DNA of 64,000 nucleotides from Candidatus Poribacteria bacterium (GTDB taxonomy: Bacteria > Poribacteria > WGA-4E > WGA-3G): assembly GCA_022822085.1 (NCBI GenBank), contig JAJECK010000091.1, positions 1 through 64,000 on the forward strand, in the 5' to 3' direction. A program made the position numbers and the translations under genes. The notes beneath the pieces were generated by a model. That model did no database searches. It was not told the origin of the DNA and worked only from the letters and a program-made list of their open reading frames with translations. Of this stretch, positions 3,976 through 14,542 are shown in pieces (position 1 is the stretch's first letter; every line of letters begins with the position of its first letter).

Positions 3976-5661
3976 TTGAGGACTCTATCAGACAAAATTA
4001 CGCTTAATCTTGACAGTGACGCAGAAGTGTCTGTCAAAGGCATTATTGCGCCGATTGAGCATACCGCGGGCAACTTTCATAGGGAATGGGAGGCGTTGGC
4101 GAATCTACGCGCTGCAGAACCAGAAAAGCAGTACTCTACGTCTGTGTTTCGAGATTTTCTTCCAGCCGAGACAGTTTCGGTGGGTGATTGCTGGCAGATA
4201 CAACAAGCCAGCGTCCAGAAATTACTGAAACAACTTCATCCGAATCCTTCTCTGGAAATGCGTGTGGAGATGTATGGGATAGAAGAAGCCAAAGGTCTTT
4301 GGGCATGCCTGCGCGCTTACAACAATCAATTCGTTCACATCGTGTTTCGCATTCACGCTGAATTTGCCTTAACCGACGGTTGGTTTACGCCTTCCCAATT
4401 CGCTGGACATCTCATTATTGATCGGGCACAAGAGACTATTGTTTTCTTTCAGATGTACCTCCCTGCAGGCACACTTAACTTTGACGTTCATTGGGAAACG
4501 ACATTAGAAGGTTGGGACGCTCCTCGATGGATTACAGATTGCGGCTATTGTTCGCAAATGGAGCTCCGTGCTGGAACACAAGATGTTCTACAAAACACCG
4601 AATTCACAGACACAATTACACAAGAAGAAGCAGAACGTTCGCTAATACTGAGATTCTACGAATCGCAACGAATTAACTGGATATCGTTAGAGGAAGCATT
4701 GGAAATGTCACCAGCACAACAGAAACCCGTCCATATCATTTCTCTGGATGGTCCTCTCACCGATGAGGCATGCTGAGGGAGCGGTAAAGATTTGAGGGCA
4801 GTTGTCCTCGGCAATGAACGTGTCATCAAATTCTTGAACGACAATTTTATCAACACATGGGTGTCAAATTTTGAATTAGGTAGGAAGCCGAGTGTTCAAG
4901 AATACCTTGTCAAAAGATACGCGCACGAATCTAAATCGTTTGACACAACACATCCGTTAGCACAAGCAATCAAGAGCGGTTGGCACGAACGCTCACCTGT
5001 AGACTGTTTTGTTATATCACCTGAGTTTGAATTGAGGGGTAAACTCGCTTTGAATAAATTCCTCTACGGAGGACATGACTGGGATGGCGGAAGGACAAGG
5101 GCAGAAAACTATCGACTTTTTCTCATAGAAGCCTTAGAAGGAAAATATCCCGGGTTTAGTGCTGATAATTCTTTCGCTTATCTATTAGGTGAGGAAGAAG
5201 ATATCCCCAAGCAAGAGAGTCCTTTCAAACCCTTCTTAACAGATTTGGATGTTGTGCTCAACCCTACGCAGCCTATGTTGGAAGTATTAGATGTAATCCG
5301 AACTCTGGAGGTTGGTTATCAGCAATCCACTATGGTAACAATTGATGCCACTGCCTTTGAAAAGGGTGGGATACTCACCATTGATATACGCCTCGGAAGT
5401 GCCGAACTTGCAGGTTCGTTCTATTTGTACGATAGCGACATCGTATTCCCCACAGAACGCGGACAACGTTACGACAAGTCTATTGCCAATGTTACGGATG
5501 TTCCACCCAGTGGAACGGGGCAAATTACCTATCCTTTCTACCGGAGTCAAGTTTTTAAGTTGGCGATTGTCTCTTCGGAACTTATGGATAAGAAGGAGTA
5601 TGTCAACGCCTTTCAGGCACGAATCTCTGTAGAACCAGTAGAAAAGCCTGAATCAATGTAG
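3976..5661 (+). CDS. Selenoprotein array gene 1 (Cys-Sec thioredoxin-like, UGA at 4774)
   Basis: One 561-residue reading frame if TGA 4774-4776 is read as selenocysteine (residue 267). The two halves are in the same frame, separated only by this TGA. Residues 1-230 form a domain I do not recognise, with motifs shared by all six copies: KGxIAPIE, EWxxLANxR, WACLRAYN (Cys111), FRIHAEF, GWFTPSQF, IIDR, and GYCxQMEL (Cys192). Around residues 252-270 a strand (HIISLDGPL) leads into DEAC-U-GSGK, then a helix with LNDNFINTWV and SPVDCFVISPEF, resembling a thioredoxin fold with a vicinal Cys266-Sec267 redox pair. The last ~130 residues look beta-rich. There is no signal peptide, so it is probably cytosolic. 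The start is TTG at 3976 with GGAG seven bases upstream. A SECIS-like hairpin follows the TGA. Confidence 0.85.
4794..4809 (+). promoter_or_regulatory. SECIS-like stem-loop, selenoprotein gene 1
   Basis: Starting 17 bases after TGA 4774-4776, GAGGGC pairs with GTCCTC (six pairs including one G-U) around the apical loop AGTT. Bacterial SECIS elements are short hairpins just downstream of UGA with a G-U or G-G-U in the apical loop, as in E. coli fdhF. Position and loop fit that model. The hairpin also encodes the conserved LRAVVL segment. Confidence 0.75.
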
Positions 5662-5808
5662 CATTTACGATGCTATACACTAAAGTTTGGATAAAGTCCA
5701 GGATGATTTAGTTTTCCGAAATTTTAGATTTTCGGGTACCACAGATCCACGGTAGGAGGGAACTCCGATTCCCGACTTTTCCGACAATGCGATATAGAGG
5801 TAAGACTT

Positions 5809-6093
5809 ATGCTTTCTATCACGTTGGATGTCCCGAGTGAACTTTCAACCCCACTTTCTATTTCCGGCTATAATCAAGAAAAACTGACTGAGGAGGCAAA
5901 ACGGTTGCTTGCGATCTCACTCTTCGAGCGTTACATTCTTTCTTTAGGGCAAGCTGCAAAATTGGCGGAACTACACTTGTGGGATTTTATTCGACTTCTG
6001 AGTCAGCAGGATATCCCAATTGCTGAATACGATGATGAGGAAATCCAACAGGAATTGAAGGCTGTCGAATGCTTAATACAACAAACAAAGTAA
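5809..6093 (+). CDS. UPF0175-family antitoxin
   Basis: A 94-residue protein with the UPF0175 layout: an N-terminal strand (LSITLDVPSEL), a helix with EEAKRLLAISLFERY, then ILSLGQAAKLAELHLWDFIR matching the helix-turn-helix segment, and LLSQQDIPIAEYDDEEI followed by a helical tail. Members usually precede a DUF3368 PIN-type toxin. Here only the last 24 codons of such a toxin follow. A GAGG lies about ten bases before the ATG. It sits between two selenoprotein paralogues with which it has no evident functional link. Confidence 0.78.
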   Translation: MLSITLDVPSELSTPLSISGYNQEKLTEEAKRLLAISLFERYILSLGQAAKLAELHLWDFIRLLSQQDIPIAEYDDEEIQQELKAVECLIQQTK

Positions 6094-6096
6094 CCG

Positions 6097-6171
6097 ATGC
6101 TACAAAAAGGCTTCCGACTCAGCAGGGGTTTGATCGATGCGGTGCTTGAAGAGGCAAGCGAAACACTTTGA
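6097..6171 (+). pseudogene. 3' stub of a DUF3368-type toxin
   Basis: Three bases after the antitoxin stop codon a 24-residue frame reads MLQKGFRLSRGLIDAVLEEA and ends at TGA 6169-6171. It resembles the last helices of DUF3368 toxins, which commonly end in a GFRxS-[x5]-hydrophobic-LxEAGE pattern. The catalytic PIN core is missing, so an internal deletion has probably joined the antitoxin end to the toxin end. The similarity is from memory of the family and would need a profile search. Confidence 0.5.
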
Positions 6172-6306
6172 AAACTTAACTTGCATGCAACACGAGTCGT
6201 CCAAACTTTAGTATATATAAGTGCATCCAAAAACGTGTATAAGCGAATCATTGCCACTTTTAATGGCAATGGTATCCTATACCGAAAAGGAAGTTCATGA
6301 CGATAA

Positions 6307-7923
6307 ATGAAAACTTTCAACAACAAAATTGCACTTAATCTTGACGGTGATGTGAGCGTGCTTGTCAAAGGCTTCATCGCACCGATTGAGTATTCTGGGA
6401 GCAACTTTCATGTAGAGTGGGACACGCTGGCAAATCTGCGCGTCGCTGAACCAGAAAAACAGTATCCCGCCTCAATTTTCTGCGACTTTCTTCCGAAGGA
6501 AACCGTCTCTGTCGGTACACCTTGGAAGATTGAGCACGCCGGTGCTCTGGAATTACTGAAGCAGCTTCATCCGAATCCATCTCTGGGTATGCGTGCGGAA
6601 CTGCCGCCCCATAAAACCGAATCTCAAGGACTGTGGGCATGCCTCCGCGCATACAACGCTGAATTCGCTGACATTGTGTTCCGCATCCACGCGCAATTTG
6701 ACCTAAAGGATGGTTGGTTCACACCTTCGCAGTTTACCGGGCATCTTGTAATTGATAGAATCAAAAGATCGGTTGACTTCTTTCAGATGTACGTTCCTGA
6801 AGGCACCATAAACTTTGATGCTAAATGGAAGATTGATCCAGACGAGGAGGGTCATATTACGGATAGCGGTTTCTGCCCGCAAATGGAACTCCGTGCTGGC
6901 ATAGAAAACGTTGGGCGAAACACTGAATTCATTGAATCTATTACACAAGAAGAAGTGGAGCACAAATTGAGTCGCTGCTTCTACAAATCGCAGCAAATTA
7001 ATTGGGTCCCGCTGGAAGAAGCGTTAGAGGTAGCACCCGCACAACAGAAACCGATCCATGCCATTTCCATAGATGGACCGCTCTTGGACGAATCCTGCTG
7101 AGGGAGCGGGAAATACTTGAGGGCAGGTGTCCTCTCTAATGAGCAAATCATCGAATTCTTGAACGACAATTTCATTAACACATGGGTCCCCAATTGTGAA
7201 TTAGGACGTATCCATAGTTTACGGGAACCGATTGCCAAAAGGCGCGAACGCGAGGGTAAGACGTTTGACACAACGCACCCGTTAGCACAAACGATTATCA
7301 AGGGGTGGAAAACCGGATCCAAAAAAGGATCCCCGGTGGATTGCTTGGTTATATCGCCGACGTTTGAACTCATAGGCAGACAACCCGCTAATGAACTCAG
7401 CGAAGATATTAAGTATAGTAGACTCCGACGGGTTGAGTATTACCTAACATTTTTCAAGGAAGCCTTGGAAGGAAAACTGCCCGGGTTGGGTAATATAATC
7501 CTGAATAGTGATAAGTATTCTCAGGATGTCCTAGATGTTTTCCGATCCCCGGTTGTTGGTTATGCTGATTATACCGTAGTCATAATTGATACGAGAGCGT
7601 TTGAAAATGGTGGCACGCTTACTATTGATATTGAGACTGGTAGAGCCGATGCAGATTGTTATTTCTATTTAGTTGATGGCGAAGACGAATTACCTACAAC
7701 CGAAAAAGTTACAAAAGATATGGTACTTGCACGGACATGGCTTGAACCTGATGAAACTGGACAACTTACGTGTCGTTTTGAACAAGGACAGTTTTTTAAG
7801 TTGGGTGCCACCGGGTGTAACTATAGAACTGAGAAAGGCAGCACCAACGCTTTTAAGGCAAAAATTTCTGTAGTGGAGAATTCAAATGAACACTTTACCA
7901 AACAAAATAATGCTCAACCTTGA
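6307..7923 (+). CDS. Selenoprotein array gene 2 (UGA at 7099)
   Basis: A 538-residue frame if TGA 7099-7101 is selenocysteine (residue 265). The halves before and after the TGA are in frame and align end to end with gene 1. Conserved motifs are KGFIAPIE, WACLRAYN, VFRIHAQF, GWFTPSQF, GFCPQMEL, HAISIDGPL, ESC-U-GSGK, LNDNFINTWV and SPVDCLVISP. The C-terminal beta-rich domain has the family pattern (AFENGGTLTIDI and FKLGATG). ATG 6307 is used; an ATG at 6297 is out of frame. The C terminus runs 38 bases past the start of gene 3, so the usual ISVEE end is followed by extra residues. The upstream region resembles that of gene 1 (GCATCC-[5]-CGTGTATAAG), suggesting the transcript of genes 2-6 begins here. 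Confidence 0.85.
7119..7134 (+). promoter_or_regulatory. SECIS-like stem-loop, selenoprotein gene 2
   Basis: GAGGGC and GTCCTC pair around the loop AGGT, 17 bases after TGA 7099-7101. The string GCAGGT at the loop is also present in the apical part of the E. coli fdhF element. Spacing is identical to the other five copies. Confidence 0.78.
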
Positions 7924-9124
7924 TAGTGACGCAGAGGTGTTAGTCAAGGGTTTCATCGCGCCGATTGAATACACACAATACAACTACCATGTTGAGTGGG
8001 ATGCCTTGGCAAACCTACGCGTCGTGGAGCCAGAAAAACGATATCCCACATCGATTTTCTCTGATTTCCTCACACAGGATCCTATTGCTATTGGCGATGT
8101 TTGGGAGATAAAACATGATGGTGTTTTGGAATTACTAAAACAACTTCACCCAAAACCCAATCTGGACATACATCTCAATGCAGGGGATTCTTGTGGTCTG
8201 TGGGCATGCCTACGCGCATTCAACGATGAATATGTTGACATCATGTTTCGCATCCATGCGGAATTTAAATTAACTGACGGTTGGTTCACCCCATCTCAAT
8301 TTAAGGGGAACCTTGTGATTGATCGCAGCAACGGAAGAATTGTCAGTTTTAAAATGTTTGTTCCAAAGGGTGTGCTCAATTTTGATGTTAACTGGTATAC
8401 GAAACTGGAGGGTTATAGCAAACCTTTATGGTACACTGATATCGGATACTGTCCACAAATGGAACTTCGTGCTGGGATTGATGAAATTCCAAATAGTATA
8501 GTATTTACGGAATCCATATCACAAGAAGTTGTAGAGAATAAACTGATACGTTGTTTTTACAAATCGCAGCAAATCAATTGGGTTTCGTTGGAGGAAGCAC
8601 TGAAAATCGCACCCATCCAACAGAAACCAATCCATGCTATTTCAATAAATGGACCGCTGGCAGACGAATCCTGCTGAGGGAGCGGTAAAAGTTTGAGGGC
8701 AGGTGTCCTCTCGGATGAGCAAATCATAACTTTCTTGAATGAAAAATTCATCAATACTTGGGTGCCTAATGCAGAATTGGGCAGAATCCGAAGTTTGCAA
8801 GAACCGATACAAAACAGACGAGTCCAAGAAGGTAAAGCATTCAACAAAAATCATGAATTAGCACAAACTATCATTAAGGGATGGAAAACCGGCACTAAAA
8901 AAGGCTCACCTGTCGATTGCTTCGTTATATCACCTGAGTTCGAACTGATGGGCAGACAATTGGTTAATGAACTGGACGACGACCAAAGAAATAGAGGACT
9001 ACCATCGGAAGAAGCATATTATCTCTCATATCTGAATGAAGCGTTGGATGGAAAACAACCAGGATTGGGTAATGTTGTTCTGACCTGTCAACAACCTATA
9101 CATGAATTAACGGACATAATCTGA
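7886..9124 (+). CDS. Selenoprotein array gene 3 (UGA at 8675, second UGA at 9122)
   Basis: Translation through TGA 8675-8677 (Sec264) gives a protein aligned with its neighbours: KGFIAPIE, WACLRAFN, MFRIHAEF, GYCPQMEL, HAISINGPL, ESC-U-GSGK, LNEKFINTWV, SPVDCFVISPEFE. The frame then meets a second TGA at 9122-9124 where paralogues have an Arg (DVFR in gene 4, DII-stop here), a one-base CGA to TGA change. No hairpin follows that second TGA, so it most likely ends the protein at 412 residues, deleting the C-terminal domain. The same frame stays open beyond it to 9859. It starts 38 bases inside gene 2 at an ATG preceded by GTGGAGAATTCAA. Confidence 0.8.
8695..8710 (+). promoter_or_regulatory. 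SECIS-like stem-loop, selenoprotein gene 3
   Basis: Hairpin of the same sequence as in gene 2 (GAGGGC, loop AGGT, GTCCTC), 17 bases after TGA 8675-8677. It supports the first TGA as the recoded one. Nothing comparable follows the second TGA at 9122. Confidence 0.78.
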
Positions 9125-9859
9125 ACATCCTCTAAAGACGATCAAAACCTGACTGTTGTAATGATAGATGCGACATCATGTAAAAATGGAGGAATGTTGA
9201 TCATCGATATTCTCATGGGAAGAGATGATGCAGAAGGGGCATTTTATTTATTGGACGGTGATTACATACTTCCAGCGGATAGAGAAGTATCAGAAGATGA
9301 TAGTCTTGCTTGGACGTGGGGTGAATCCGACGAGACACTTCAGATTAAGCATAGGTTTGTCAGCGGACAATATTTCAAGTTAATCGCAACACGTTATTGG
9401 GATGAAGATACTCCATATATCAACGCATTTCACGCAAAAATTTCTGTAGAAGGAGATACGGCAACTGAAATGAAGATTGTCCTGGATAAAGAACATCCGA
9501 AACAGAAGGTCATGGATACTTTTCGTGCCCCTGGACATGGAAATCAGGATTATACTGTTGTCAATATTGATGCATTAGCATTTGATAATGGTGGCACGCT
9601 TACCATAAAAATTCAAGTCGGGAATGCAGAAGCATCCGGTTCTTTCGACCTATTTGATGAAGATATTAAACTTCCCACAAAAGGCACTCCTAAGGAGGCT
9701 CTCAGTTCTACATGGGGAATTGCACCCGGTAACAATGGGACAATCACACACAGTTTTGAGAAAGGTAAAGTCTTCAAACTTGGAGCCACAGGTGACTGGT
9801 TCAGTAAGAAGGGAGACATAAATGCATTTCATGCAATAATATCAGTAGAGGAAAATTAA
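9125..9859 (+). pseudogene. Detached C-terminal part of selenoprotein gene 3, two beta domains
   Basis: The open frame after TGA 9122 continues without another stop to 9859 and is in the same phase as gene 3. It encodes two consecutive copies of the C-terminal domain seen once in the paralogues. The first runs from VMIDATSCKNGGMLIIDI to AFHAKISVE. The second begins near 9510 (VMDTFRAPG) and runs to AFHAIISVEEN. The domain was therefore duplicated, probably by unequal recombination in the array. It may be a separate gene if translation restarts at ATG 9161, or dead sequence, or part of a 657-residue protein if the second TGA is also read through. Confidence 0.6.
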
Positions 9860-9860
9860 A

Positions 9861-11399
9861 ATGGCAACTTCTCCAAACAAAATTACGCTCAATCTGAGTG
9901 GTAATGAAAAAGTAACAGTCAAAGGTTTCATCGCGCCGATTGAGACTATGAAACCTAACTTTCACGAAGAATGGGATGCACTGGCAAATATGCGTGTGAG
10001 CGAACCTGAAAAGGAGTATGGTCAGTCGGTTTTCCATGCTTTTCTTCCTAACGATCCTGTAGGTATCGGGGACTGTTGGAAAGTCAAAGAAGCTGGCGTA
10101 ATGGAGCTGCTCCAACAACTAAATTCTAATCCTAATTTGGATATGCATATTAATATTGGAGACTCCGATGGGTTATGGGCATGCCTAAGAGCATACAATA
10201 ATCAATTGGCACATATCTTGTTTCGTATTCATGCAGAATTTCAATTAGAAGATGGATGGTTTACGCCTTCTCACTTTGCGGGAGATTTGATTATTGACCG
10301 AACAAAAGGGGGTGTTGTTTATTTTCAACAGCATGTACCAGAAGGAAAAAGGTTTGATGTTAATTGGAAGAAAGATAAAGACGATCCGAACTATTTTTAT
10401 TCCACAGCATCCGGTGTATGTCCAAAAATTGAACTTAATGGGGGTAAGCGTCCCGCTCTGCGGGGTACAGAATTTGCTGTATCTATTACACAAAAAGAAG
10501 CGGAAAAGAAACTAATCAAGCAATTTTACAAATCGCAGCAAATCAACTGGGTTCCCTTTGAAGACACCCTAAAATTAGCACAGGCACAACAGAAACCGAT
10601 CCATGCATTATCTATAGATGGACCACTTGACGACGAGGCGTGCTGAGGAAGTGGCAAAAACTTGAGGGCAGGTGTCCTCTCCGACGACCGAATTATCAAT
10701 TATCTAAATGAAAATTATATCAATACATGGATACGTACTATTGAATTGAGAAACATGCGTGATACATTGGGATATCAGCAAATGTCCCCCTTGACGTGGA
10801 CTATTATCGATCATAAATGGCGTAGAGGTCCTGTAGACGCTTGGATCATATCTCCCGAACTTGAAGCAATAGGACATGTCCCGATCAATGAATACCTTGG
10901 AAACAACAGACGTGAAGATGGAACACTGGAAAGTGAAAATTACCTGTTGTTTCTCCAGGATTCCTTAGCAGGAAAACTCCCAGGATTAGGGAATATTGTT
11001 CTCACACCAGAACAGCCTTCAGATACACTATTAGACGTTTTTCGTACACCAGAATATGGGCATCAGGATTATACCGTTGTCGTTATTGACACTACTTCAT
11101 TTGAGAACAAAGGCACACTGACTATCAACATAGAATTGGGCAACGATAAAGCGTCCGGTTCATTCTTTTTGCTTGATGCAGCCCATAAACTATCCTTTGA
11201 TGCTCAGAACAAACGACCAGATGCTGGCATGTTTGATGGTGCACACGACATAGGCTGGTACGATCCATGCGAAATTGGTCAAATGACACATCAATTTGAA
11301 CAAGGACAAATCTACAAACTGGTTGGCATGGGATGGGCATCTAACGAAAAGGGAAGCATTAACGCTTATCAGGCTAAGATTTCTGTGGAGGAAGAATAA
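9861..11399 (+). CDS. Selenoprotein array gene 4 (UGA at 10644)
   Basis: A 512-residue frame with TGA 10644-10646 as Sec262. It carries KGFIAPIE, WACLRAYN, LFRIHAEF, GVCPKIEL, HALSIDGPL, DEAC-U-GSGKNLRAGVLSD, LNENYINTWI. In the thioredoxin-like part the segment corresponding to SLREPIAKRREREGKT is shortened and the SPVDC cysteine is replaced (GPVDAWIISPE), so that Cys is not essential while the Cys-Sec pair is invariant. The C-terminal domain is present. It starts one base after the stop codon of the gene 3 tail, consistent with co-translation. Confidence 0.85.
10664..10679 (+). promoter_or_regulatory. SECIS-like stem-loop, selenoprotein gene 4
   Basis: GAGGGC, loop AGGT, GTCCTC, 17 bases after TGA 10644-10646. 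The intervening codons are GGA AGT GGC AAA AAC where others have GGG AGC GGT/GGG AAA: several third positions and one Ser codon box differ while the hairpin bases are unchanged. Confidence 0.78.
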
Positions 11400-11400
11400 A

Positions 11401-12987
11401 ATGGACAGTCAAAACAAAAAAATATCTCTTAAGCTTAACAGGAACACAGAAGTAACGGTTAAAGGTTTCATCGCTCCGTTTGAATACGATTCATCCGACT
11501 TCCGCATAGAATGGGACGAATTGGCGAATCTACGTGTCGCTGAACCGGAGAAGCAGTATCCCGCATCCGTTTTTCAATCTTTTCTGCCATTAGAACGGGT
11601 TTCAGTCGGTGAATGCTGGCAGATTCAACAAGAAGATGCATTAAATTTACTGCGCCAACTCTCTCCTCGTCCACAACTGAAATTGCATATTAATTCGGGA
11701 GATCCTGACCGTGCTATGTGGGCATGTCTCCGTGCATACAATCACGAATTCGCTGAGATCCTATTCCGTATCCATGGACAATTCGTTATGAATCGCGGTT
11801 GGCTGACCCCTTCACAATTTGCGGGACATCTGATTATTGATAGGATAAAAGAGAAAATTGTCTCCTTTAAACTGCATGTGCCTCAAACTACACTGAACTT
11901 TGACATCGGGTGGACACAAGAAGATGGGAACACAGCTGCAGCTATCGGTTATTGTCCTCGAATGGAACTCTGTGTCGGTACACCGCTATTGGCTACGGAA
12001 TTCATCGCGTCAATTACGCAAGAAGATGCCGAAAATGCGCTCATATCGTGTTTCTATGAGTTACAGAAAATAAACTGGGTTACGCTGGAGGAAGCGTTAG
12101 AAATGGCACCCGCACAACAAAAGCCGGTTCATGTGATATCTGTAGATGGACCGCTTTTTGATGAGGCATGCTGAGGGACTGGCAAATGCCTGAGGTCAGG
12201 TGAACTCTCTGAAGATCGAATCATAGAATTCTTGAACGAAAACTTCATCAACACGTGGGTAACCAACGCTGAATTAGGACGCTCAGCCAGTTTGCGAGAA
12301 CCCATTGCAAAGCGACGCGAACGCGAAGGTAAGACGTTAAATACAACCCACCCCTTAGCGCAAGCAATTATGAAAAGTTGGAAAAAAGGTTCACCAGTGG
12401 ACTGTCTGGTTATTTCGCATGAGTTTGAACCGTTGGGCGGTATAGACTATAACGAGTTTCTCGAATGCATAGGGGAGTTTGATGACTGGGGAGATGCATA
12501 CCTGCATTTTCTCAAGGCATCCGTAGCAGGGGATCGTCCAGGATTGGGGAATCTTGTCCTAACGCCAGAACAACCATCACAAGAGGTAGTAGATACCTTT
12601 CGTGCCCCAATGGTGGTACATCAGGAATACAAAGTAGTCTACATTGACACTACCGCGTTTGAGAAGGGGGGAACACTCTCCATTGACATCCATGTCGGTA
12701 GAGATGATGGTATAGGGTTATTTCACCTATTGGATGAAAATAAAAAACTACCTACTGAAGAAGTTCCTGAAGGAATTGATCCTAAACAGTGGCACACACA
12801 ATTAAGTGATGCGTATAATAACGCTCTTAATGCACTTGCTCAATGTTGCGGTATATTCCCCGGTCAAACTGGACGAATTACCTATCAGTTTGACCGGGGT
12901 CAACGCTTCAAATTATGTGCAACTGGAGACCAATGGGGTGGTGTTGGAGACATAAACGCATTTCACGCAAAAATTTCTGTGGAGTAA
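11401..12987 (+). CDS. Selenoprotein array gene 5 (UGA at 12172)
   Basis: A 528-residue frame with TGA 12172-12174 as Sec258. The start ATG 11401 follows the previous stop codon by one base. It is the most diverged redox motif of the set: DEAC-U-GTGKCLRSGELSE, where Ser becomes Thr and an additional Cys appears four residues after Sec. The codon aligned with the TTG that follows the Lys in other copies is CTG here, which supports Leu decoding and argues against a separate start site. The N-terminal motifs (WACLRAYN, LFRIHGQF, GYCPRMEL) and the C-terminal domain are kept, with an insertion around AYNNALNALAQCCG in the latter. Confidence 0.83.
12192..12207 (+). promoter_or_regulatory. SECIS-like stem-loop, selenoprotein gene 5 (variant)
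   Basis: GAGGTC and GAACTC flank the conserved loop AGGT at the usual distance. Compared with the other copies the fifth pair changes from G-U to U-A, a compensated change that supports the stem, but the fourth pair becomes a G-A mismatch. The apical loop is unchanged. The element is plausible but weaker. Confidence 0.6.
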
Positions 12988-12994
12988 AACACAA

Positions 12995-14542
12995 ATGAAA
13001 TCTTTACATGATAAAATAACTCTCAATCTCAAAGGTAATGAGAAAATATTAGTCAGAGGGACCTTTACGCCGATCGAATATACAAAAGACAACTTTCACG
13101 TGGAGTGGGAGGAATTAGCGAATCTGCGTGTCGTTGTACCAGAAAAACAGTATGCTACATCAGTTTTTCAAGGGTTTCTCCCAAGCAAACCTGTTTTAGC
13201 CGGTGAAACATGGAAGATTGAAGAAGAAAGTGTGCTTGACTTGCTAAGACAACTTCATCCTGATCCACATCTGGTAAGGGATGCAGACTCCCAAGGACTT
13301 TGGGCATGCCTGCGCGCCTATAACGATAAATTCGTTGACATTGTGCTCCGTATTCATGCAGAATTTGCTTTAAAAGGGGGGTGGTTCACACCTTCACAGT
13401 TTGCCGGCAACCTCGTTATTGATCGAACGCAAGGAAAATTGGTACGCTTTCACATGCATGTACCTCAAACGATACTAAATTTCGATGTCGGTTGGGATAC
13501 TATAGGTTGCACGGACATTGGATTCTGCCCAAAAATAGAACTCTGTGCAGGCACACAACCTGATGTCGAATATGACATATCAATTACCCAAGAAGTAGCG
13601 GAACGCACGTTAATCCTCTGTTTCTACAAATCAGAGCAAATTAACTGGGTGCCACCCGATCAAGCGGTAGCAATAGCAGAAGAACAGGTTAAACTCATTC
13701 ATGTTATTTCAATAGACGGACCATTGACTGATGAAGCCTGCTGAGGGAGCGGTAAAGAATTGAGGGCAGTTGTCCTCTCAGATGATCAAATCATTAAATT
13801 CCTGAATGAAAACTTCATCAATACGTGGATAACCAATGCCGAATTAGGACGTACTCCCAGTTTAAGAGAACCAATTGCTAAACGATATGAACGAGAAGGC
13901 AAAACATTCAACACAGCACAATCTTTTGCACAAGCCATTATGAAAGGATGGATAGATGGATCACCAGTAGATTGTTTAGTAATTTCTCCGGAATTTGATG
14001 TCATGGGAAAATTACCGCTGAATGATTCCTTTGATGAATGTTCAAATAACGGAATTTCAGATGTTGATGGATATCTTACTTTTCTTAACGACTCGTTAGA
14101 TGCGAAATTTCCTGGTTTCAATCCAAGAACAACAGACGCATTATTGACCGGTGCTAATGTTGATCTCAATCACGAAAAACCAACAGATAAAGTGCTGCAC
14201 ATACTTCGTGCACCTAAATACGGAAACCAAGACTACAATGTAATTACCATTGATACGACTGCCTTTGAAAACGGTGGCACCCTCACGATTGACATCCGGA
14301 TGGGAAGTTCTAAATCTGGCGGGTCATTTGATCTTTTTGATGGAGACGCAGCGTTACCTAAACATGGCGTTCCCACTGAAGCACTTACCTCTGTGTGGGA
14401 TATTCCGACTGGTCAGAGAGGAATTATTGAGTATCAGTTTGATATGGGAAAAATTTTTCAACTGGGTGCTACTGGAACATGGTTTAGTGGAAAAGGAAAC
14501 ATAAATGCATTCCATGCTATTATTTCAGTGAAGGACAATTGA
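12995..14542 (+). CDS. Selenoprotein array gene 6 (UGA at 13742)
   Basis: A 515-residue frame with TGA 13742-13744 as Sec250. Motifs: RGTFTPIE in place of KGFIAPIE, WACLRAYN, VLRIHAEF, GWFTPSQF, GFCPKIEL, HVISIDGPL, DEAC-U-GSGKELRAVVLSD, LNENFINTWI, SPVDCLVISPEFD. The C-terminal domain ends AFHAIISVKDN. It starts seven bases after gene 5. It is the last member of the array, and a promoter for the ferredoxin gene follows 18 bases after its stop. The N-terminal domain is slightly shorter than in the other copies. Confidence 0.85.
13762..13777 (+). promoter_or_regulatory. SECIS-like stem-loop, selenoprotein gene 6
   Basis: GAGGGC, loop AGTT, GTCCTC, 17 bases after TGA 13742-13744. Identical to the element of gene 1, so the two loop types (AGTT in genes 1 and 6, AGGT in genes 2-5) split the array into ends and middle. 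Confidence 0.76.

What the first reader, a model, noticed from the sequence alone, without database searches (positions are those of the whole stretch)
9122..9859. Second in-frame UGA and duplicated C-terminal domain in array gene 3
Gene 3 alone has another TGA (9122) where its paralogues encode Arg, followed by an open frame encoding two copies of the C-terminal domain instead of one. No SECIS-like hairpin follows this TGA. It may be a recent nonsense mutation, a gene split with restart at ATG 9161, or an accidental second Sec. The extra domain shows that recombination within the array is creating new proteins.
Basis: partly seen in the sequence, partly recalled or inferred. Interest (0 to 1): 0.62.

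Follow-up and report, generated by a model that had tools for sequence, protein, structure and literature searches.

The report
Truncating stop in a selenoprotein paralogue
One of six neighbouring selenium-protein genes in a bacterium of the group Candidatus Poribacteria has an arginine codon changed into a plain stop codon, which most likely makes a shorter protein without its two tail domains; the extra tail domain itself is old and common in relatives, so the case is mostly an ordinary gene-decay event.

Summary
Gene 3 (7886-9859) of a six-gene Sec-UGA array has a second in-frame TGA at 9122-9124, at a near-invariant Arg. The frame then stays open for 244 codons encoding two C-terminal domains (CTDs). 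Its closest orthologues (G005, G015) have the same two-CTD layout, with CGA (Arg) and CTG (Leu) at the site. The TGA lacks the SECIS that follows all six Sec-UGAs (matrix score -108 versus 54-64), so a second Sec is very unlikely. ATG 9161 has no Shine-Dalgarno, is not conserved and would cut off the first CTD strand, so a useful restart is unlikely. The post-TGA region has no further stop or frameshift and evolves no faster than in TGA-free orthologues, so the change is young, erroneous or still read through. Control genes give no sign that UGA is a sense codon. The extra domain is not a recent duplication: full-length two-CTD genes occur in 18 other sampled genomes, and CTD2 belongs to a different lineage from CTD1. 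Best reading: a recent CGA-to-TGA nonsense change (or a base-call error) truncating the protein to its Sec-thioredoxin core. A second independent CGA-to-TGA case lies in G010, a single-contig genome.

The parts
7886..9859 (+). Gene 3 of the array: N-terminal beta domain, thioredoxin-like domain with Cys-Sec, CTD1, CTD2
   Evidence: profile hits
8675..8677 (+). First in-frame TGA, the Sec codon (DESC-U-GSGK)
   Evidence: same motif in 116 family sites; matrix score among 54-64
8695..8710 (+). SECIS-like hairpin GAGGGC-AGGT-GTCCTC after the Sec-UGA
   Evidence: 95% of cells paired, 9 cells with changes on both sides, in 49 distinct sequences
9122..9124 (+). Second in-frame TGA, read here as an ordinary stop; CGA in orthologue G005, CTG in G015
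7886..9121 (+). Predicted main product (412 aa with Sec): N-terminal domain plus Sec-thioredoxin core; last 15 residues are disordered linker
   Evidence: AlphaFold2 model, mean pLDDT 86.4, residues 398-412 below 50
9092..9451 (+). CTD1 (beta sandwich); contains the TGA in its first strand region
   Evidence: profile hit 134.9 bits; structure from the model of CTD2
9161..9163 (+).
9494..9853 (+). CTD2; 76% identical to CTD2 of the G005 orthologue, only about 40% to CTD1 of the same gene
9857..9859 (+). TAA that ends the full frame
3976..14542 (+). Six-gene array of Sec-UGA genes (g1 3976-5661, g2 6307-7923, g3 7886-9859, g4 9861-11399, g5 11401-12987, g6 12995-14542)

Best explanation
The 9122 TGA is a recent single-base change, CGA (Arg) to TGA, that acts as a normal stop. 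Translation passes the first UGA by inserting Sec with SelB and the SECIS hairpin (inferred from anatomy), goes on to 9122 and ends there. The product is the N-terminal domain plus Sec-thioredoxin core without either CTD. This resembles the few CTD-less members found naturally in relatives, so the truncated protein may still work as a redox protein. The 735 bases downstream, with the CTD1 remnant and CTD2, are a leftover reading frame that has not yet decayed. The two-CTD layout was inherited, not created here. Shown: TGA, open frame, orthologue codons, no SECIS, no decay, old layout. Inferred: termination at 9122, reality of the base, and function of the short protein.
For: The closest orthologues, G005 (74% identical) and G015 (65%), are uninterrupted with CGA and CTG at the site; CGA to TGA is one transition, at a CpG. 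There is no SECIS, while SelA, SelB and tRNA-Sec are present for the first UGA. The 732 bases after the TGA have no stop or frameshift; 3.3-4.0% of single changes there would make a stop, so zero hits bounds the untranslated age to about 0.10-0.12 changes per site, against a saturated dS of 1.2-1.8 to G005. Unique amino-acid changes, G000 versus G005: N-terminal 19:9, Trx 17:9, CTD1 23:12, CTD2 8:14, so no acceleration specific to the post-TGA region. The core folds confidently without the CTDs, and CTD-less Sec members exist (L064, L065, L013). Two other long conserved genes of the window (907 and 998 aa) show no internal in-frame stop in full-length matches across the family, so UGA is a stop in these genomes.
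Against: A base-call or assembly error in this 158-contig assembly would look the same; no reads or second strain are held. Perfect preservation after the TGA also fits readthrough. The only two internal stops in full-length family domains, here and in G010, are both at Arg/CGA positions; by codon opportunity CGA is about 8% of transition routes to a stop (calculated from the counts), so two of two is mildly surprising, though this is post hoc, n = 2, and CpG mutability could explain it.
Confidence: 0.66

Rival explanations
1. Sequencing, assembly or strain-mixture artefact: the true or dominant base is C and gene 3 encodes an intact two-CTD selenoprotein.
For: The orthologue has CGA; the post-TGA region is fully conserved and under the same constraint as in TGA-free orthologues. 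The genome is a 158-contig assembly.
Against: A single substitution error in a consensus is uncommon (general knowledge); the independent G010 case lies in a single-contig assembly, so real CGA-to-TGA changes probably do occur in this family.
Confidence: 0.17
2. Leaky stop: UGA 9122 is partly read through by a near-cognate tRNA, giving a major short core and a minor long form with two CTDs.
For: No decay after the TGA in G000 or in the G010 case; both cases are UGA at Arg/CGA positions.
Against: No recoding element was found; the base after the stop is A, not the leaky C (general knowledge); UGA is not read through in control genes; the UGA is not conserved in any orthologue.
Confidence: 0.1
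3. Split gene: a second protein starts at ATG 9161 (or at ATG 9471 before CTD2) and is made separately.
For: An open frame of 232 codons from ATG 9161; ATG 9471 has AGGAGA upstream, but 14 bases away.
Against: No Shine-Dalgarno at 9161, unlike the array starts; ATG 9161 is not conserved; the product would lack the first strand of CTD1.
Confidence: 0.05
4. Second selenocysteine at 9122.
For: The cell has Sec machinery and the codon is UGA.
Against: No SECIS: score -108 versus 54-64, rank 1193 of 2650 TGAs in the window; the site is Arg or Leu, not Cys, in relatives, and bacterial Sec needs a SECIS immediately 3' of the UGA (PMC9312934).
Confidence: 0.02

Closest known systems
Bacterial selenoproteins decoded by UGA plus an immediate 3' SECIS (SelB type)
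   Same: The first UGA of all six array genes: UGA, then a hairpin GAGGGC-AGGU-GUCCUC; SelA, SelB and tRNA-Sec in the genome
   Different: The second UGA at 9122 lacks the hairpin and is not at a Cys position; the protein family has no Pfam or NCBIfam model
Multi-Sec selenoproteins such as vertebrate selenoprotein P
   Same: More than one in-frame UGA
   Different: There the UGAs are decoded as Sec; here the second UGA shows no sign of decoding and is not conserved
Nonsense-interrupted paralogues (young pseudogene or truncation allele in a multigene family)
   Same: One base change from an orthologous sense codon, frame otherwise intact, other paralogues intact, relatives with frameshifts or deletions in the same family (L046, L049, L052, L066)
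   Different: The stop falls at the domain boundary, so the remaining protein may keep its redox core
DsbH / AGR2-type thioredoxin-fold proteins
   Same: Best PDB fold matches of the core: 7tkv (Thioredox_DsbH domain), 3ira, 2ju5 DsbH, 3ph9 AGR3
   Different: Cys-Sec in the active-site motif, an added N-terminal beta domain, low overall coverage (query TM about 0.2)
Beta-sandwich domains (GOLD domain, C-terminal part of Tk-SP, ColH collagen-binding domain)
   Same: Fold matches of the CTD with query TM about 0.55-0.62
   Different: Sequence identity 5-18%; fold likeness only

Membership tests
Bacterial selenocysteine site (for TGA 9122) | SECIS hairpin immediately 3' of the UGA | tested here: not met
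   Matrix score -108.3 versus 20-70 in 116 Sec sites; free energy -2.9 kcal/mol
Bacterial selenocysteine site (for TGA 9122) | Cys or Sec at the same position in homologues | tested here: not met
   Arg in at least 90% of 47 aligned CTDs; CGA in G005, CTG in G015
Bacterial selenocysteine site (for TGA 8675) | SECIS, conserved UGA and Sec machinery | tested here: met
Nonsense-interrupted gene | Stop codon where orthologues have sense, with homologous sequence continuing in frame | tested here: met
Nonsense-interrupted gene | Relaxed constraint or further lesions after the stop (expected only if old) | tested here: not met
   No further lesion in 732 bases; rates as in TGA-free orthologues: too young, an artefact, or still translated
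Nonsense-interrupted gene | The stop is real in reads and terminates translation | not testable with these tools
   No reads, strains or peptides held
Recent within-gene tandem duplication of the CTD | CTD1 and CTD2 are each other's closest relatives | tested here: not met
   CTD1 groups with CTD1s and single CTDs of related cores; CTD2 lies in a clade with gene-6-type CTDs; about 40% identity between them
Genetic code with UGA as sense | In-frame UGA inside unrelated conserved genes | tested here: not met
   No internal UGA in full-length matches of 907-aa and 998-aa genes across the family; non-array TGA-ended ORFs in the window extend at most 38 codons

The most novel reading that the evidence does not exclude
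UGA at the core-CTD boundary or inside a CTD is a leaky or programmed stop in this selenoprotein family, making a short Sec-thioredoxin core and a long form with CTDs; the parallel CGA-to-UGA changes in G000 gene 3 and the G010 g4 orthologue would be two independent instances.
Probability: 0.07. Interest if true: 0.6.

Novelty: new member of a known kind. Interest (0 to 1): 0.3.

Why it matters
It settles what the second UGA is probably not: not a second Sec, and not a sign of a new code. It gives a clean natural contrast inside one reading frame, one UGA with a SECIS that should be decoded and one without that should terminate, and a natural CTD-truncation allele. The comparison also shows that the CTD is the changeable part of a so far unnamed Sec-protein family in Poribacteria: absent, single or double, with CTD2 of one lineage attached to several cores.

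Tried and rejected
Second Sec: rejected on the missing SECIS and on Arg/Leu in relatives. Restart at ATG 9161: rejected as likely, on Shine-Dalgarno, conservation and structure. UGA reassignment: rejected with control genes and ORF extensions. Long-dead pseudogene tail: rejected on the intact frame and on rates. Recent tandem duplication of the CTD: rejected by the CTD tree. Relaxation of CTD1 at conserved columns: no clear signal, 3 departures in G000 against 3 and 4 in the orthologues. Rows marked '2 TGA' for G013 and G023 were followed up and are not second internal stops in a CTD. A third control gene (855 aa) has single stops in several rows of the table; their positions were not checked, so it is not used. 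Pfam, NCBIfam and Rfam gave no convincing match. The one genome-contig scan gave only other Poribacteria, no second assembly of the same species. Papers on Poribacteria selenoproteins: none found in the library.

Full report
What is there. The window carries six tandem genes (3976-14542) of one family. Each has a first in-frame TGA in the motif DE[AS]C-U-G[ST]GK, followed by a conserved hairpin. Gene 3 alone in the window has a further TGA at 9122-9124, then 244 open codons with two CTDs. The organism is a member of Candidatus Poribacteria, judged by the named relatives found. SelB and tRNA-Sec lie together on contig 94 and SelA on contig 104 of the same genome.

Orthologues. A tree of 115 family members places gene 3 with L044 +5839 (G005) and L055 -14270 (G015) with 99% SH-aLRT support. 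Both have two CTDs and no second TGA; their codons at the site are CGA and CTG. In a search of 58 genomes of the family, 21 other genes in 18 genomes match gene 3 over its full length, and every one has exactly one internal TGA, which is the Sec codon in those read here. So the two-CTD layout is old and the second TGA is private to this genome among those held.

Origin of the extra domain. In a tree of 135 CTDs, second CTDs need only 2 changes of label and sit in a clade with CTDs of gene-6 type; first CTDs need 13 and sit with single CTDs. On the core tree the two-CTD label needs 14 changes, at least 10 of them forced by well-supported branches (two of the 23 labelled genes, in L046 and L058, are probably broken single CTDs). 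CTD2 is therefore not a copy of CTD1. Shuffling of one CTD lineage onto several cores, or repeated loss, explains the pattern; the data do not choose between them.

Is it Sec? No sign of it. A position matrix from 116 Sec sites gives the six array Sec-UGAs 53.8-64.0, the next best TGA in the window -48.5, and 9122 -108.3. The matrix was trained on the array sites too, so their scores are favoured, but the gap is over 100 bits. The Sec hairpin itself pairs in 95% of cells with 9 two-sided changes. Bacterial Sec insertion needs a SECIS directly after the UGA (PMC9312934).

Is it a restart? Array starts have GGAG-like sites 6-9 bases upstream (13 for g2); ATG 9161 has none. Homologues have TTG, AAT, GTG, ACA or ACG at that codon. 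A product from 9161 would lack the first strand of CTD1 in the predicted fold.

Is UGA a sense codon here? Two other long genes of the window (907 and 998 aa), searched in 58 genomes, show no internal stop in full-length matches; one G016 row with 2 TGA is a partial match overlapping its neighbour in another frame, which I read as a frameshift. A third gene (855 aa) shows single stops in several rows whose positions I did not check. TGA-ended genes outside the array extend at most 38 codons past the stop.

How old is it? The post-TGA region has no stop or frameshift. Given that 3.3-4.0% of single changes there make a stop, zero hits bounds untranslated drift to about 0.10-0.12 changes per site (my calculation, 95%). 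Synonymous divergence from G005 is saturated at 1.2-1.8. dN of CTD1/CTD2 is 0.28/0.16 for G000-G005 and 0.31/0.21 for G005-G015, a pair without the TGA. So the change is young, an error, or the tail is still made.

How often does this happen? Among 151 CTD and 124 core profile hits in the fetched loci, two full-length domain hits hold a non-Sec stop: 9122, and the g4 orthologue in G010 (L050), where AAA TGA CCA stands where this genome has AAA CGA CCA. Frameshifts or deletions occur in L046, L049, L052 and L066. Family members are thus lost or shortened now and then, as expected in a multigene family.

What the short protein would be. The pre-TGA product folds with mean pLDDT 86.4 and ends in a disordered tail. 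The best PDB matches are DsbH/AGR-like thioredoxin folds. Members without a CTD exist in L064, L065 and, more distantly, L013. The CTD is a beta sandwich with GOLD- and jelly-roll-like matches; its role is unknown, and binding or targeting is my guess. The most likely effect of the TGA is therefore a core-only protein, not necessarily a dead gene.

Verdict. The claim of ongoing domain creation is not supported for gene 3. Interest is modest; the parallel G010 case keeps a small chance for leaky stops open.

Noticed in passing
L050 (G010:C1), reverse strand, offset 7623; g4 orthologue: A second independent internal TGA in a CTD, at an Arg that is CGA in four orthologues; the rest of the gene is intact and the genome is a single contig.
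   Followed up: partly
L052 from 7887 (G012:C82:175889-177454): A family member with TCA (Ser) in place of the Sec-UGA (DEAC-S-ESGK) while the SECIS hairpin sequence is kept: a natural Sec loss.
   Followed up: partly
window 3976-14542 and loci L043-L082: The whole Sec-protein family has no Pfam or NCBIfam match and forms arrays of several genes in many Poribacteria genomes.
   Followed up: partly
window gene ends, e.g. 9845-9861 and 11386-11401: The conserved end of the CTD (ISVEE, GTGGAGGAA) appears to double as the Shine-Dalgarno of the next array gene.
   Followed up: partly
L012 (G000:C112), reverse strand: A seventh full-length Sec gene of the family outside the array, with a neighbouring 480-codon open frame that carries a CTD but no Sec core.
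   Followed up: no
L064 -12598 and L065 +8788: Two orthologous Sec members that end 129 codons after Sec with no CTD, natural core-only forms.
   Followed up: partly
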